From assembly GCA_946187775.1 (NCBI GenBank), contig CAMHSI010000012.1, positions 1-35,083 on the forward strand: a stretch of DNA of 35,083 bases. Reading direction: 5' to 3'. The notes under the pieces were generated by a model that saw only the letters and a program-made list of their open reading frames with translations, ran no database searches and was not told the DNA's origin. This DNA is from an uncultured Clostridia bacterium (lineage in GTDB: Bacteria > Bacillota > Clostridia > Christensenellales > Aristaeellaceae). The first letter of the stretch is position 1. The number at the start of each line of letters is the position of its first letter. A program made the position numbers and the translations under genes. Shown here piece after piece: positions 18,105-22,951 of the stretch.

Positions 18105-18127
18105 GCCTGCCCTTACTCGGGGCAGGC
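18105..18127 (-). terminator. Hairpin at the end of the metal efflux operon
   Basis: GCCTGCCC and GGGCAGGC, 8-bp arms with a seven-base loop, overlapping the arsR stop codon and followed on the minus strand by ATTCCTTTT. It probably ends the operon before the MBL gene. Confidence 0.5.
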
Positions 18128-18466
18128 GATTTCCGCGATTTCCTCAATCATGCGGTGCAGGGCTTCGGCCTTGCGGTTTTCCGCTGCACGGTAGCGGACC
18201 TCCCTGCCTTCCCGGCGGGAGACGATGAGGCCGCTTGCCCGCAGCAGCTTCAGGTGGTGGGAGAGGGCAGGACTGGACATATCCATCATGGCGGACAGGT
18301 CCAGGAGGCAGGCTTCGCAGTGGCACAGCAGCCAGAAAAGCCGGATCCGGGTGCCGTCGCTCATCAGGCCGAACAGATCCGCGGAGGCGGTGAATTCCGC
18401 CGGCGCGGGCATGTGGTCAAAAAGCCGTTCCGCGGCTTCATCATGGGCATGGGGCAGGTGCTGCAT
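18113..18466 (-). CDS. ArsR/SmtB-family metal-responsive repressor (CadC-like)
   Basis: A 117-residue winged-helix repressor. CHCEACLLDL at 48-57 is at the alpha-3 metal-sensing site (ELCVCDL in CadC/ArsR), with C48, C50 and C53 as candidate ligands. The recognition helix is SSPALSHHLKLLRASGLI, followed by the usual wing (REGREVRYR). The N-terminus is His-rich (H3, H6, H8). It is the last gene of the metal efflux operon, 18 bases after the ATPase, with AAAGGAGG. It should sit on the palindromes at 20687-20722 and leave them when Cd, Zn, Pb or a similar metal binds. Confidence 0.9.
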   Translation of the reverse strand: MQHLPHAHDEAAERLFDHMPAPAEFTASADLFGLMSDGTRIRLFWLLCHCEACLLDLSAMMDMSSPALSHHLKLLRASGLIVSRREGREVRYRAAENRKAEALHRMIEEIAEIACPE

Positions 18467-18484
18467 CGGGGAGCCTCCTTTGGT

Positions 18485-20404
18485 TTATTTACCGGTAAAC
18501 AGGGCGCGGATGGCGTTGAGCACGGCCAGCACCATGACGCCCACATCCGCGAAAACGGCAAGCCACATATTGGCAATGCCCAGGGCGCCGAGCACCAGGC
18601 ATACGGCCTTCACCGCCAGGGCGAAGAAGATGTTTTCCCGGACGATGCGCATGCATTTGCGGGAAATCCGGATGGCTTTGGCGATCTTCAGGGGATTGTC
18701 ATCCATGAGGACGATATCCGCCGCTTCGATGGCGGCGTCGGATCCCATGGCGCCCATGGCGATTCCCAGGTCCGCCCGGGTCAGCACGGGGGCGTCGTTG
18801 ATGCCGTCCCCGGCGAAGGCCAGCACCTCCTTCGGGTGCCTGGACTTCAGCAGCTCCTCCAGCATGGAAACCTTGTCCTCCGGCAGCAGGTCGCTGTAAA
18901 CCTGGTCCAGCTCCAGCCGCTCCGCCACCTGCCGGGCAACGGCGTCCCGGTCCCCGGTGAGCATGACGGTGCGCCGGACCCCCGCGGCCTTCAGGGCGGC
19001 GACGGCCTCCTTGGCTTCCGGCTTCTCCCGGTCGGAGATGACGATGTGGCCGGCGTAGGCGCCGTCCACCGCCAGGTGGACGATGGTTCCGGTTTCATGA
19101 CATTCCACACAGGGAACTCCCAGCCGTTCCATCAGCCGGGCGTTGCCGCAGGCAACCTCCTTTCCGTCCACCAGGACCCGGACGCCGTTGCCGCTGATCT
19201 CCTCCACATGGGAAACCCGGGAGAGGTCCAGGGGCCGGGTGCAGGCCTTCCGGATGCTGACGGCGATGGGATGGGAGGAGGAGGATTCCGCCAGGGCGGC
19301 GTATTCCAGCAGATCCTCATCCGACAGGGGAGAATGGTGTACGGCGGTGACCTGGAAAACGCCCTCCGTCAGGGTGCCGGTCTTGTCGAAGACCACGATG
19401 CCCGTACGGCTCAGCTCCTCCAGCCACACGGACCCTTTCACCAGGATGCCCGCCTTGCCCGCTCCGCCGATGCCGGCGAAAAACGTCAGGGGGATGCTGA
19501 TAACCAGGGCGCAGGGGCAGGAGATGACCAGGAAGGTCAGGGCCCGGTAAATCCATTCGCCCCACTCCGGCGAAAGGCCCAGGAAGAGCCCCCGGACCAG
19601 GGGCGGCAGGAGGGCCAGCGCCAGGGCGCCGAAGACCACCGCGGGAGTATAATACCGGGCGAAACGGGAGATGAAGGTTTCAGACCTGGATTTCAGGGAG
19701 GAGGCGTTCTCCACCAGCTCCAGGATTTTTGACACGGTTGATTCCCCGAAGACCCGGGTGGTGCGGATCCGCAGCACGCCGCTCATGTTCACGCAGCCGC
19801 TGCAGATCTCGTCCCCGGGCTTCACATCCCGGGGGATGCTCTCCCCGGTGAGGGCAGCAGTGTTCAGGGAGGATTCCCCTTCCAGGACGACGCCGTCAAT
19901 GGGTACCTTCTCCCCGGGGTTCACAAGGATGACGCTGCCAACGGGCACCTCGTCCGGATCCGTTTCCTCCGCGCCTTCCGGGGTTTCCAGCCGGGCATAA
20001 TCCGGCCGGATATCCATCAGGGCGCTGATGTTCTTCCGGCTCCGGCCTACGGCGATGCCCTGGAACAGCTCCCCGACCTGGTAGAACAGCATGACGGCCA
20101 CAGCCTCCACAAAGTCCCCGGTTTTCAGGAAACCGATGGCCAGGGCGCCCAGGGTGGCCACCGCCATGAGGAAATTCTCATCAAAGACCTGCCGGTTCAG
20201 GATTCCCCGGAAGGCCTTCCGCAGGATGTCGTATCCGATGATCCCGTAGGGGACCAGGTAAAGCAGCAGCCGGGGCAGCCGCCCCAGGGGCCCTTCCGGC
20301 AGGAAGGACAGCCGGGGAAAATCCTCGGGCAGCAGGGCCAGGGCGATCAGCATGGACGCTGAGACGCAGATGCGGATGAGAACCTTTTTCTGTTTCCGGG
20401 TCAC
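18485..20404 (-). CDS. Heavy metal translocating P1B-type ATPase (Cd/Zn/Pb type) without HMA domain
   Basis: A 639-residue pump that exports soft divalent metals with ATP. Key motifs are TGES (about 186), the membrane CPC (296-298), the phosphorylated Asp in DKTGT (D340), the SSHP motif (H378) and GDGINDAP. Eight membrane segments are expected. The usual N-terminal heavy-metal-associated domain is missing; a free-standing one is encoded 39 bases upstream. The start is a GTG at 20404 with GAGGG before it; an ATG seven bases upstream is out of frame. Cd/Zn/Pb is favoured over Cu by the CPC plus ArsR context, but this is inference. Confidence 0.93.
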   Translation of the reverse strand: MTRKQKKVLIRICVSASMLIALALLPEDFPRLSFLPEGPLGRLPRLLLYLVPYGIIGYDILRKAFRGILNRQVFDENFLMAVATLGALAIGFLKTGDFVEAVAVMLFYQVGELFQGIAVGRSRKNISALMDIRPDYARLETPEGAEETDPDEVPVGSVILVNPGEKVPIDGVVLEGESSLNTAALTGESIPRDVKPGDEICSGCVNMSGVLRIRTTRVFGESTVSKILELVENASSLKSRSETFISRFARYYTPAVVFGALALALLPPLVRGLFLGLSPEWGEWIYRALTFLVISCPCALVISIPLTFFAGIGGAGKAGILVKGSVWLEELSRTGIVVFDKTGTLTEGVFQVTAVHHSPLSDEDLLEYAALAESSSSHPIAVSIRKACTRPLDLSRVSHVEEISGNGVRVLVDGKEVACGNARLMERLGVPCVECHETGTIVHLAVDGAYAGHIVISDREKPEAKEAVAALKAAGVRRTVMLTGDRDAVARQVAERLELDQVYSDLLPEDKVSMLEELLKSRHPKEVLAFAGDGINDAPVLTRADLGIAMGAMGSDAAIEAADIVLMDDNPLKIAKAIRISRKCMRIVRENIFFALAVKAVCLVLGALGIANMWLAVFADVGVMVLAVLNAIRALFTGK

Positions 20405-20443
20405 GGGGCATCCCTCTTTTCCGCCGCGGAGCGGTCCGCGGGC

Positions 20444-20662
20444 TTACAGTTCGATTTCGCAGTCGTTTTCCACCTTTTTGCAGGCTTTGAGCACTTCCTT
20501 CATCACGGCGGCGGGCTCCGCGCCTTCAGCGAAGGAAACGTTCATTTTCTGGGTCATGAAATTGACGGTCACGGATTCCACGCCGGGCACTTTGGAGGCG
20601 GCGCATTCCATTTTGTTGGCACAGTTGGCGCAGTCCACTTCGATTTTGTAGGTCTTTTTCAC
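20444..20662 (-). CDS. Free-standing heavy-metal-associated (HMA) domain protein
   Basis: A 72-residue metallochaperone-like domain with the metal site DCANCANKME (CxxC) and the beta-alpha-beta-beta-alpha-beta pattern ending in CEIEL. The start is taken as GTG at 20662 because AAGGAGG lies eight bases before it; an in-frame ATG at 20683 would put this ribosome site inside the gene. It is the first gene of the efflux operon and probably hands metal to the ATPase, which lacks its own HMA domain. Confidence 0.85.
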   Translation of the reverse strand: MKKTYKIEVDCANCANKMECAASKVPGVESVTVNFMTQKMNVSFAEGAEPAAVMKEVLKACKKVENDCEIEL

Positions 20663-20686
20663 GGCTGGGGCCTCCTTCTTCATCAG

Positions 20687-20722
20687 CGATTGTTTATTCA
20701 ACGATTAAACAATCGTTTAATC
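20687..20722. promoter_or_regulatory. Nested palindromic operator of the metal efflux operon
   Basis: Three overlapping inverted repeats: CGATTGTTT/AAACAATCG (20687-20695 and 20707-20715), AACGATT/AATCGTT (20700-20706 and 20711-20717), and GATTAAAC/GTTTAATC (20703-20710 and 20715-20722). They lie just downstream of the -10 box and before the ribosome site, where a bound ArsR protein would block transcription. Confidence 0.7.
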
Positions 20723-20847: not shown

Positions 20848-20877
20848 TTGACAGAAAGCTGCTGTTTTTACTATAAT
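20848..20877 (+). promoter_or_regulatory. Consensus promoter of the metQ-like gene
   Basis: Perfect TTGACA (20848-20853), 18 bases, perfect TATAAT (20872-20877). The leader to the start codon is about 58 bases, too short for an S-box (SAM) riboswitch. Confidence 0.8.
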
Positions 20878-20941: not shown

Positions 20942-21814
20942 ATGAAGAATAAGAAGACACTGATTGCCGCGTGTATTGCGCTGATCGTGATCGTGCTGGC
21001 TGTGCTACTGCTTACCGGCGTAATCGGCGGAAAGAAACAGCAGAAGATCACTGTGGCACTGCCCAACGACGCCACCAACGAAGGCCGCGCTCTGCTGTTG
21101 CTGCAGGCTCAGGGCCTGATCAAGCTGAAGGACGATGCCGGAATCACCGCCACGAAAGCTGATATCGTGGAAAACAAGCTGGGGATCGAGTTCAACGAAG
21201 TGGAAGCGGCCATGGTGCCCAATGTGCTGAAGGACGCGGACTATGGCGTGATCAACGGCAACTATGCCCTGGCTGCCGGCTTGAGCAAGGCTCTGCTTTA
21301 TGAAAACTCCGAATCCCCCTACGTGAACGTGGTATGCGTGAACGAGGCCAATAAGGATACAGACATGGCCAAGGCCTTGGCTGCCGCTGTGCTGAGCCAG
21401 CAGGTAGCCGACTATTTCGCGGAGAAGTATCAGGATGGTTCCGCTATTGCCACCATCGACAATCCCACCGACGGCTATGACGCCTCTGTGGATTACGCGG
21501 CTCTGGCCGGGCAGACCATCAAGGTCGCCTGCACGTTGGATCCCCATTCCTATGTGTTGGAAGTGGCCAAGAAGATCTTGGCCGAGAAGGATATCACCTT
21601 GGAGATCGTGATCGTGGATGACTATGTGACTCCTAACACCATGGTGGATACCGGGGACGTGTTCGCCAACTACTTTGCGCATCAGCCCTACCAGGATGAC
21701 TTCAACAAGCAGAACAATACCAAGCTGGTCACCATCGCTGGCGTGCACGTGGAGCCCATGGGCCTCTACGCTGGCAAGCAGGCAGATCTGGGCGCGCTGG
21801 GTCTGAAAAAGTAA
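20942..21814 (+). CDS. Circularly permuted MetQ/NlpA-type substrate-binding protein with membrane anchor
   Basis: A 290-residue substrate-binding protein of the methionine ABC importer family, with its halves in reversed order. Residues 36-165 match the C-terminal half of ordinary MetQ (ALPNDATNEGRALLLLQ at 39-55, AGLIKLKD-like LIKLKD, VINGNYAL, ESPYVNVV). Residues 192-290 match the N-terminal half (IKVA, DDYVTPNT at 226-233, FANYFAHQPY, HVEPMGLY at 269-276). The linker 166-191 joins the old ends. The protein begins with a membrane segment (about 7-29) and no proper lipobox; C11 comes too early. AGGTAAGGA precedes the ATG. Ligand is probably methionine, from the MetN/MetI neighbours. Confidence 0.85.
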   Translation: MKNKKTLIAACIALIVIVLAVLLLTGVIGGKKQQKITVALPNDATNEGRALLLLQAQGLIKLKDDAGITATKADIVENKLGIEFNEVEAAMVPNVLKDADYGVINGNYALAAGLSKALLYENSESPYVNVVCVNEANKDTDMAKALAAAVLSQQVADYFAEKYQDGSAIATIDNPTDGYDASVDYAALAGQTIKVACTLDPHSYVLEVAKKILAEKDITLEIVIVDDYVTPNTMVDTGDVFANYFAHQPYQDDFNKQNNTKLVTIAGVHVEPMGLYAGKQADLGALGLKK

Positions 21815-21835: not shown

Positions 21836-21860
21836 ATCCGGGCGGAAGCCCGGATTTTTT
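21836..21860 (+). terminator. Rho-independent terminator between metQ-like gene and metN
   Basis: Perfect 8-bp arms ATCCGGGC and GCCCGGAT with a GGAA loop, followed by a run of T. It should largely separate the binding protein from metNI. Confidence 0.85.
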
Positions 21861-21866
21861 CATTGC

Positions 21867-21895
21867 TTGAAGTTTGGACTTGATCCGGATATAAT
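21867..21895 (+). promoter_or_regulatory. Promoter of metNI
   Basis: TTGAAG (21867-21872), 17 bases, perfect TATAAT (21890-21895), just after the terminator. Confidence 0.7.
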
Positions 21896-21925: not shown

Positions 21926-22951
21926 ATGATCGAGCTTCGCAACCTGTCCAAGCTGTTCACTACTACGGACGGCCCAGTGGATGCCCTGCGGCATATCAAT
22001 CTGACCATTAACAACGGGGATATCTATGGGATCATTGGCATGAGCGGCGCGGGGAAGAGTACCCTGGTCCGCTGTATCAACATGCTGGAGCGGCCGACGG
22101 AAGGGACCGTGTTGATGGACGGGGTGGACCTGGGAACACTTGGAAAGAAAGAAATCCAGAAGGTGCGTCGGCGGATCACCATGATCTTCCAGAGCTTCAA
22201 TCTGTTGATGCAGCGGACCTGCCTGGAAAACGTGATGCTGCCGCTGCGGCTGTCCCGCGTGCCCGTGGCCCAAGCTCGTGCGAAGGCCATGGAGTTGCTG
22301 GAAATGGTGGACCTGCCCAACAAGGCTAACGCCTATCCAGCCCAGTTGTCTGGTGGACAACAGCAGCGGGTGGCTATTGCACGGGCCCTGGCCACAGAAC
22401 CGGAGGTACTACTGTGTGACGAGGCGACATCCGCCCTGGATCCGAAAACGACCCATTCCATCCTAGAACTGATCCGGGAGATCAACCGGAAGATGGGGAT
22501 CACCGTGATCGTGATCACCCACCAGATGAGCGTGGTGCAGGAGATTTGCAATCGGGTGGCGATTCTGGAGAACGGCGAAGTGGTGGAGGAAGGGGAAGTG
22601 AGCGAGGTTTTCTCCAATCCGAGGACTAATGCCACCCGCAGCTTGATCTATCCTGAAATGACGGAGGGTATGATGCTCTTCTCCAGTGGCGGACAGCGCC
22701 TGCGGGTACTGTTCAACGGTGCGGTGACAGAGCCGCTGATCGCCCGGATGGCTATGGAATGCAATATCGCGGCAAGCATTCTGGGAGCATCTACCCGCTC
22801 CGTGGGGGACCGGGCTTACGGATACATGCTGCTGGATATCCCGGGAGGGCCGGAGGAAATGGCCAAGGCCGTGAGCTACCTGAGCCGGATCCAGGATATT
22901 ACAGTGCAGGTGGAAGCAGAATATAAAGCAGGGGAGGCGGAAGAGGAATGA
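21926..22951 (+). CDS. metN: Methionine-type ABC transporter ATPase with NIL domain
   Basis: A 341-residue ATPase that drives methionine uptake. Walker A is GMSGAGKST, the signature is LSGGQQQRVAIARAL, and Walker B is VLLCDEATSALD. The C-terminal 90 residues (about 250-335) form the NIL domain that binds methionine and causes trans-inhibition in MetNI. CCGGAGGAA precedes the ATG. It overlaps metI by four bases (ATGA). The gene is ordinary in domain order, unlike the binding protein. Codon use in this locus shows more TTG and CTA leucine codons than nearby genes. Confidence 0.94.
   Translation: MIELRNLSKLFTTTDGPVDALRHINLTINNGDIYGIIGMSGAGKSTLVRCINMLERPTEGTVLMDGVDLGTLGKKEIQKVRRRITMIFQSFNLLMQRTCLENVMLPLRLSRVPVAQARAKAMELLEMVDLPNKANAYPAQLSGGQQQRVAIARALATEPEVLLCDEATSALDPKTTHSILELIREINRKMGITVIVITHQMSVVQEICNRVAILENGEVVEEGEVSEVFSNPRTNATRSLIYPEMTEGMMLFSSGGQRLRVLFNGAVTEPLIARMAMECNIAASILGASTRSVGDRAYGYMLLDIPGGPEEMAKAVSYLSRIQDITVQVEAEYKAGEAEEE

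What the first reader, a model, noticed from the sequence alone, without database searches (positions are those of the whole stretch)
20942..21814. Naturally circularly permuted MetQ substrate-binding protein
The protein carries both conserved halves of MetQ, but in swapped order. The block that begins PNDATNEGRALLLLQ and ends after ESPYVN, normally C-terminal, is at residues 36-165. The block with DDYVTPNT, FANYFAHQPY and HVEPMGLY, normally N-terminal, is at 192-290. In ordinary MetQ the HVEPMGLY block runs directly into the PNDPTNEGR block; here that junction has become the protein's two ends, and a new linker (about 166-191) joins the old ends. I know of no described natural permutant in this family. 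One route would be tandem duplication of metQ followed by loss of the outer halves. It would change which lobe is tethered to the membrane.
Basis: partly seen in the sequence, partly recalled or inferred. Interest (0 to 1): 0.88.

Follow-up and report, generated by a model that had tools for sequence, protein, structure and literature searches.

The report
Naturally reordered methionine-binding transport protein
A group of gut and rumen bacteria and some relatives make their methionine-catching protein with its two halves in swapped order, and because the swap recurs across many species it is a real product of evolution rather than a sequencing error.

Summary
ORF 20942-21814 (290 aa) carries both MetQ (PF03180) blocks in swapped order: profile positions 98-231, then 1-94. 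All seven methionine contacts of known MetQ are kept; a NIL-domain MetN and a MetI follow. It is not a misassembly: the order recurs in 46 of 100 genomes searched (own included), four of them of one or two contigs, and in 18 of 390 other genomes of the class, from ten other families. No canonical copy was found in 38 of the 46 or in the 18. Of 137 distinct homologues compared, 77 are permuted. They form two clades with different linkers. Two independent permutations at the same loop are favoured, but MetQ alone does not reject one (p-AU 0.06-0.39). Permuted genes stand Q-N-I; canonical ones mostly follow metN-metI. Most likely function: methionine-binding protein of the adjacent importer, anchored through the opposite lobe. 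Natural permutation is known in other binding proteins (TpMglB-2; betaine-binding proteins); my searches listed none for MetQ.

The parts
20848..20877 (+). sigma-70-type promoter-like site, 12 of 12 matches, spacer 18, upstream of the permuted gene
   Evidence: consensus match only; 5 promoter-like sites found in the stretch against a shuffle mean of 0.8
20942..21814 (+). permuted metQ gene, 290 aa (P0001)
20942..21040 (+). residues 1-33: N-terminal hydrophobic helix (4-25 in the model), no lipobox cysteine after the hydrophobic stretch; probably an uncleaved membrane anchor (inference)
   Evidence: sequence; helix 4-25; lipobox pattern scan
21041..21454 (+). residues 34-171: block normally C-terminal in MetQ, with ligand residues R49, N105, N129
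21455..21511 (+). residues 172-190: new linker (DNPTDGYDASVDYAALAG); its signature is present in 64 of 64 clade I proteins and 0 of 60 canonical ones
   Evidence: pattern made after seeing the sequences
21512..21811 (+). residues 191-290: block normally N-terminal in MetQ, with ligand residues Y228, F245, H247, Y250
21836..21855 (+). terminator-like hairpin followed by a T run between metQ and metN
   Evidence: 1 found, shuffle mean 1.3: not above chance by count
21867..21895 (+). second promoter-like site (10 of 12) before metN
21926..22951 (+). metN: ABC ATPase with C-terminal NIL domain
   Evidence: PF00005, PF09383
22948..23658 (+). metI: ABC permease
   Evidence: PF00528

Best explanation
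The gene encodes a natural circular permutant of the methionine-binding protein MetQ that serves the adjacent MetN-MetI importer. Shown: the two MetQ blocks are present in swapped order; the order is conserved in many species; the gene stands directly before metN-metI; all seven methionine contacts are kept; in 38 of 46 carriers among the relatives and 18 of 18 elsewhere in the class no canonical copy was found. Inferred: the chain folds into the usual two-lobed MetQ, closes on methionine and hands it to MetNI; the N-terminal anchor now leads into the lobe that holds the amino and carboxyl groups of methionine (R, N, N) instead of the lobe around the thioether (Y, F, H, Y); the permuted gene arose by fusion of tandem metQ copies with loss of the outer halves, probably twice at the same interlobe loop.
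For: Swapped PF03180 stretches; 22 of 22 PDB matches in two stretches, crossed over in the 5 printed. Recurrence: 46 of 100 genomes, namely 41 of 45 of the same genus (own genome counted), 5 of 15 in other genera of the family, 0 of 40 in other families of the order (my count from the table, order confirmed on the fetched loci); 18 of 390 other genomes of the class, each with no second hit at E 1e-20 (a lower bound, as weaker rows are not listed); one genome outside the class (G523). G002, G023, G035 and G044, of one or two contigs, have only a permuted copy. 77 of 137 distinct homologues are permuted. Contacts R156, N213, N238, Y81, F98, H100, Y103 of N. meningitidis MetQ (PMC6739813, passages) map to R49, N105, N129, Y228, F245, H247, Y250, identical in the 22 permuted rows aligned (of 77; both clades). 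The chance that seven random positions all fall among the 30 invariant columns is 1.4e-7. MetN with NIL domain, MetI. A MetN lies downstream within 4 kb in 74 of 77 permuted loci. Model pLDDT 83.3.
Against: No binding or transport data. pTM is only 0.73, and the normally N-terminal block alone gave a poor model (pLDDT 60.7). One MetQ-family structure (1p99) aligned across both blocks, 34-255. No SAM riboswitch or other regulatory Rfam element ties the operons to methionine (window and 39 loci: one tRNA only). The own genome is 64% complete, so absence of a canonical copy there is weak. A topology-independent superposition could not be run.
Confidence: 0.88

Rival explanations
1. Assembly artefact: a tandem or chimeric metQ in one metagenome bin.
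For: The window's genome is a fragmented bin (111 contigs), and tandem canonical metQ pairs exist.
Confidence: 0.01
2. The permuted protein binds something other than methionine (another amino acid, a Met-containing peptide or a sulphur compound); the MetQ label overstates specificity.
For: A family member, GmpC of S. aureus, is reported to bind the dipeptide GlyMet (title in the reference list of PMC6739813); clade II is divergent (28-31% identity to the window protein); no riboswitch evidence.
Against: All seven methionine contacts are identical in the 22 aligned rows; the window's MetN carries a NIL domain.
Confidence: 0.12
3. One permutation event only; clades I and II descend from one permuted ancestor and look unrelated because clade II evolved fast.
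For: Same interlobe breakpoint and same Q-N-I order. On MetQ alone one clade is not rejected: p-AU 0.063, 0.143, 0.059 and 0.387 for the two blocks apart. In a thinned set of 49 rows without 13 long-branched canonical rows, the 31 permuted rows are one side of a branch, support 80/76.
Against: Both fuller MetQ trees (89 and 94 rows) need two changes, forced by starred branches, with 0% of 200 bootstrap trees showing one (the bootstrap had not settled). In one search clade II joins canonical G188/G214/G445 proteins at 100/99. The linkers differ. A GVxGx..xxW start is shared by 8 of 9 clade II rows and 5 rows of those three genomes, by no clade I row. MetQ+MetN+MetI rejects one clade, which assumes that the three genes travelled together.
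Confidence: 0.35
4. The permutation is an adaptation to anchoring: moving the N-terminus away from the binding residues, as proposed for TpMglB-2 (PMC4990184, passages).
For: Permuted proteins outside the window's family carry a lipobox (19 of 19 counted); the window protein has a hydrophobic N-terminal helix.
Against: In the window's own family 53 of 58 permuted and 19 of 22 canonical proteins lack a lipobox by my pattern, though Lgt-family genes are present (61 of 61 genomes); 35 of 38 canonical proteins outside the family have a lipobox, so anchoring alone does not call for permutation.
Confidence: 0.2

Closest known systems
MetQ / NlpA family methionine-binding lipoproteins (PF03180; E. 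coli and N. meningitidis MetQ)
   Same: Both sequence blocks, all seven methionine contacts, adjacent MetN (NIL domain) and MetI.
   Different: Blocks in swapped order; a new linker joins the old ends; the window protein lacks a lipobox; gene order Q-N-I, where canonical genes compared here mostly follow metI; NCBIfam MetQ cut-offs not reached.
TpMglB-2 (Tp0684) and its proposed 'Type Ic / Cluster Bc' relatives, naturally circularly permuted glucose-binding proteins (PMC4990184, passages)
   Same: Natural circular permutation of an ABC binding protein; relatives in many Gram-positive gut bacteria; ligand binding and closing kept in the published case.
   Different: Type I sugar-binding protein, another family; there the permutation adds a fourth hinge crossing and concerns the last part of the chain; here the two halves of a MetQ change places.
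Glycine-betaine binding proteins (OpuAC, ProX), circular permutants found by structure (PMC2395249, section 11)
   Different: Those share under 24% identity and were found by structure; here the relation is plain in sequence (48% identity over 139 residues of one block).

Membership tests
MetQ/NlpA homology family (PF03180) | Sequence match over the family profile above the curated cut-off | tested here: met
   211.9 bits against a cut-off of 27, in two stretches
MetQ/NlpA homology family (PF03180) | Seven methionine-contacting residues | tested here: met
   R49, N105, N129, Y228, F245, H247, Y250, identical in the 22 rows aligned; placed by the printed E. coli alignment and residue spacings
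MetQ/NlpA homology family (PF03180) | Partner MetN with NIL domain and MetI in the same operon | tested here: met
   for the window; MetN downstream in 74 of 77 permuted loci (NIL domain tested in the window's MetN only)
canonical MetQ architecture | One collinear match, N-terminal block before C-terminal block | tested here: not met
   swapped; NCBIfam TIGR00363 139.9 bits against 228.85 and NF008285 143 against 374
canonical MetQ architecture | Lipobox cysteine (lipoprotein) | tested here: not met
   no lipobox in the window protein by pattern; present in 19 of 19 permuted relatives outside the family
canonical MetQ architecture | Binds methionine and works with MetNI | not testable with these tools
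   needs protein
naturally circularly permuted binding proteins | Old termini joined, new termini elsewhere, both halves homologous to the unpermuted relative | tested here: met
naturally circularly permuted binding proteins | Same three-dimensional fold as the unpermuted relative | tested here: inconclusive
TpMglB-2-type Cluster Bc | Homology to MglB-type sugar-binding proteins | tested here: not met
   only PF03180 reached its Pfam cut-off

The most novel reading that the evidence does not exclude
MetQ was circularly permuted at least twice, independently and at the same interlobe loop, in Bacillota. Each time this came with a move of the gene from behind to in front of metN-metI, and the permuted form displaced the canonical one in whole lineages. 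MetQ would then be a natural system in which swapping the order of the two lobes, and so the tethered lobe, is repeatedly favoured or neutral, with tandem metQ pairs as the likely precursor.
Probability: 0.55. Interest if true: 0.72.

Novelty: new variant of a known kind. Interest (0 to 1): 0.62.

Why it matters
MetNI-MetQ is one of the few ABC importers structurally known in several states (PMC6739813, abstract and passages). A natural permutant that keeps every ligand contact but is anchored through the other lobe allows a direct test of how much the position of the tether and the path of the chain through the hinge matter for delivery to the permease. It also gives a family with clear sequence homology in which to study how permutations arise, since canonical single, canonical tandem and permuted genes are all found in one bacterial class. 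Collinear models such as NCBIfam's MetQ models score the window protein below their cut-offs.

Tried and rejected
Assembly artefact: rejected by recurrence in one- and two-contig genomes and in public records from different studies.

Loss of the lipoprotein pathway as the reason for the missing lipobox in the window's family: Lgt-family (PF01790) genes were found in 61 of 61 genomes, so rejected as stated. The copies differ in score and not all need be true Lgt.

Riboswitch control: the window, 19 loci and 20 loci searched against Rfam at gathering score; one tRNA only.

A fused or partly trimmed intermediate (A-B-A-B or B-A-B in one frame): not seen among the loci read. The longest candidate (580 aa, L158) is an SBP_bac_3 domain fused to a canonical MetQ. 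Tandem canonical pairs were seen, but several were fetched because the search had read through the stop between them, so their abundance and frame are not evidence.

'The nearest canonical relatives of clade II are tandem': G188, G214 and G445 are all tandem, but they were fetched partly for that reason. Eight other family-f63 loci (L160, L162, L165-L170) have the ordinary start motif, and of these only L162 is tandem. A class-wide search with a model of the tandem proteins again set G188, G214 and G445 apart, but the model was built from them. In some searches the row nearest to clade II is the long-branched canonical L020.

One versus two origins: MetQ alone does not decide, and a thinned tree puts all permuted rows on one side of a branch at 80/76 (L020, L017, L008 and ten fast canonical rows left out, clade I thinned to 19). 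In one search, 11 of 94 rows were dropped because the block border was not found by pattern; there the tree of the C-terminal block alone does not even hold clade I together (2 changes). The MetN+MetI tree and the MetQ+MetN+MetI tree are quick trees, with long-branch warnings. In one search two tandem loci entered twice with the same MetN and MetI.

Lipobox counts rest on a pattern of mine, and 16 named loci (L033-L048) were counted with the window's family without a family code. Most of the five pattern hits among the 58 permuted proteins of that family look doubtful; L039 looks real. A first, looser pattern was replaced. A first linker pattern matched only 13 of 64 clade I proteins and was replaced by the one.

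Paper searches for a described permuted MetQ. None of the rows listed is one; one search returned no paper at all. Only the top rows of each search were seen, and the library holds openly licensed papers only.

Papers seen: PMC2395249 (passages and section 11), PMC4990184, PMC6739813, PMC8416018 and PMC12357092 (passages), PMC2861598 and PMC12667903 (term finds with nothing useful). All others: search listings only.

Full report
The observation. Window 20942-21814 is an open frame of 290 codons. Pfam's Lipoprotein_9 (MetQ/NlpA) profile matches it in two stretches, 211.9 bits in all. In DNA order the stretches are profile 98-231 (21047-21442) and then profile 1-94 (21518-21799), so the halves are swapped. 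All 22 of 22 PDB sequences matched by phmmer show two stretches, and the five printed alignments all cross over. The break lies in the loop that joins the halves in canonical MetQ, between GIYSxKIKDL and xIAIPND in the canonical rows: the permuted window chain reaches the strand ITVALPND just after its leader and ends a few residues past GLYAGKQADLGAL. Residues up to about 171 still follow the old C-terminal tail, so the new linker is about 172-190.

It is real and widespread. Of 100 genomes (the own genome and 99 relatives), 65 have a PF03180 match. By my count of the table, 46 carry the permuted order: 41 of 45 in the window's genus (own genome included), 5 of 15 in other genera of the same family, and 0 of 40 in other families of the order; 19 have canonical copies only (order confirmed on the fetched loci). 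In 38 of the 46 no canonical copy was found; 8 have both. G002, G023, G035 and G044, of one or two contigs, have one permuted copy and nothing else. In 391 genomes drawn from the class, 170 match at E 1e-20. A full-length permuted match without a stop between the blocks is listed in 19: the own genome and 18 others in ten other families, each with no second match; two of the 18 have one or two contigs (G483, G327). Weaker rows were not listed, so this is a lower bound. In 398 genomes drawn from the phylum at a strict threshold (1e-54), one genome outside the class (G523) has it; two further hits (G693, G825) are tandem canonical pairs read through a stop. After removal of identical ones I compared 137 homologues with both blocks: 77 permuted, 60 canonical. 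The canonical ones were picked by me and are not a census.

Two clades. Clade I (64 proteins, the window's among them) has the linker signature G[YFTH][DAKH]xx[VI][DN]Y in 64 of 64, and clade II (13 proteins) has FPAF-type ends in 13 of 13; 0 of 60 canonical proteins have either. The patterns were made after seeing the sequences. Clade II starts its normally N-terminal block with a GVxGx..xxW motif (8 of 9 rows). Of the 48 canonical rows 5 have it, all from G188, G214 and G445; none of 37 clade I rows has it. In a tree of 94 rows with the blocks brought into one order, clade I is 100/100, clade II is 100/100, and clade II joins the canonical G188/G214/G445 proteins at 100/99; two changes of order are needed and 0% of 200 bootstrap trees have one, though the bootstrap had not settled. 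A first tree of 89 rows also needs two. A thinned tree of 49 rows without the fast canonical rows puts all permuted rows on one side of a branch, 80/76. A quick tree of MetN+MetI, with long-branch warnings, places clade II's transporters with those of G445 and G214, apart from clade I. The test for one permuted clade gives p 0.063 and 0.143 on MetQ, 0.059 and 0.387 on its blocks apart, and practically zero on MetQ+MetN+MetI. The last assumes that the three genes travelled together. So two origins are favoured but not proven.

Operon. A MetN lies downstream within 4 kb of the permuted gene in 74 of 77 loci (3 have no neighbour in reach). Of 60 canonical genes, 55 have I, or N and I, upstream; L015 and L016 are canonical with Q-N-I; L057 and L078 have a canonical gene, then a permuted gene, then N and I; one has no neighbour in reach. 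The window's MetN has a NIL domain. Upstream of the window's metQ stands a perfect promoter-like site (20848-20877), and a terminator-like hairpin with a second promoter-like site lies between metQ and metN (consensus matches only).

Function. N. meningitidis MetQ holds methionine by R156, N213 and N238 from one domain and Y81, F98, H100 and Y103 from the other (PMC6739813, passages). Printed alignments to E. coli MetQ, the aligned range of 7mbz_E (query 36-164 on 143-273) and the residue spacings place these at R49, N105, N129, Y228, F245, H247 and Y250. All seven are identical in the 22 permuted proteins aligned, of both clades; seven random positions would all fall among the 30 invariant columns with probability 1.4e-7. 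The swapped blocks thus correspond to the two contact sets. In canonical MetQ the anchor leads into the Y/F/H/Y lobe; here it leads into the R/N/N lobe. That is inference from published lobe assignments.

Anchor. Permuted proteins outside the window's family carry a lipobox (19 of 19 counted); inside the family 53 of 58 permuted and 19 of 22 canonical ones do not by my pattern, and the window's protein has a bare hydrophobic helix. Lgt-family genes are present in 61 of 61 genomes. For E. coli and N. meningitidis the lipid of MetQ is reported as needed for association with, or maximal stimulation of, MetNI (PMC8416018, passages), so how unlipidated permuted forms stay near their permease is open.

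What is known. Natural circular permutation is published for TpMglB-2, a type I glucose-binding protein with relatives in many Gram-positive gut bacteria, and it keeps binding and closing (PMC4990184, passages). It is also published, by structure, among glycine-betaine binding proteins (PMC2395249, section 11). Eight paper searches listed no permuted MetQ. I therefore file this as a new variant of a known kind.

Noticed in passing
window 18113-20701, - strand: Metal-handling cluster beside the operon: ArsR-type regulator, P-type ATPase and a small heavy-metal-associated (HMA) protein.
   Followed up: partly
genomes of the window's genus: Lgt-family (PF01790) matches number 2-8 per genome in the 37 genomes of the window's genus searched, against 1-3 in 24 genomes of other families of the order: an unexplained expansion.
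   Followed up: no
L158 2449-4188, - strand: A 580-aa protein fuses a family-3 solute-binding domain to a canonical MetQ domain, in front of metN and two permease genes.
   Followed up: partly
L057, L078, L080, L081: A canonical MetQ-like gene lies directly before a permuted one; in L080 and L081 each seems to have its own metN-metI pair on its outer side.
   Followed up: partly
L039 and L132: Long Ala/Glu-rich spacers stand between the lipobox and the permuted domain.
   Followed up: no
L015, L016: Canonical MetQ genes with Q-N-I order and a MetN that scores higher against the window's MetN (322-326 bits) than in the other canonical loci printed: possibly a trace of recombination between operons.
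   Followed up: no
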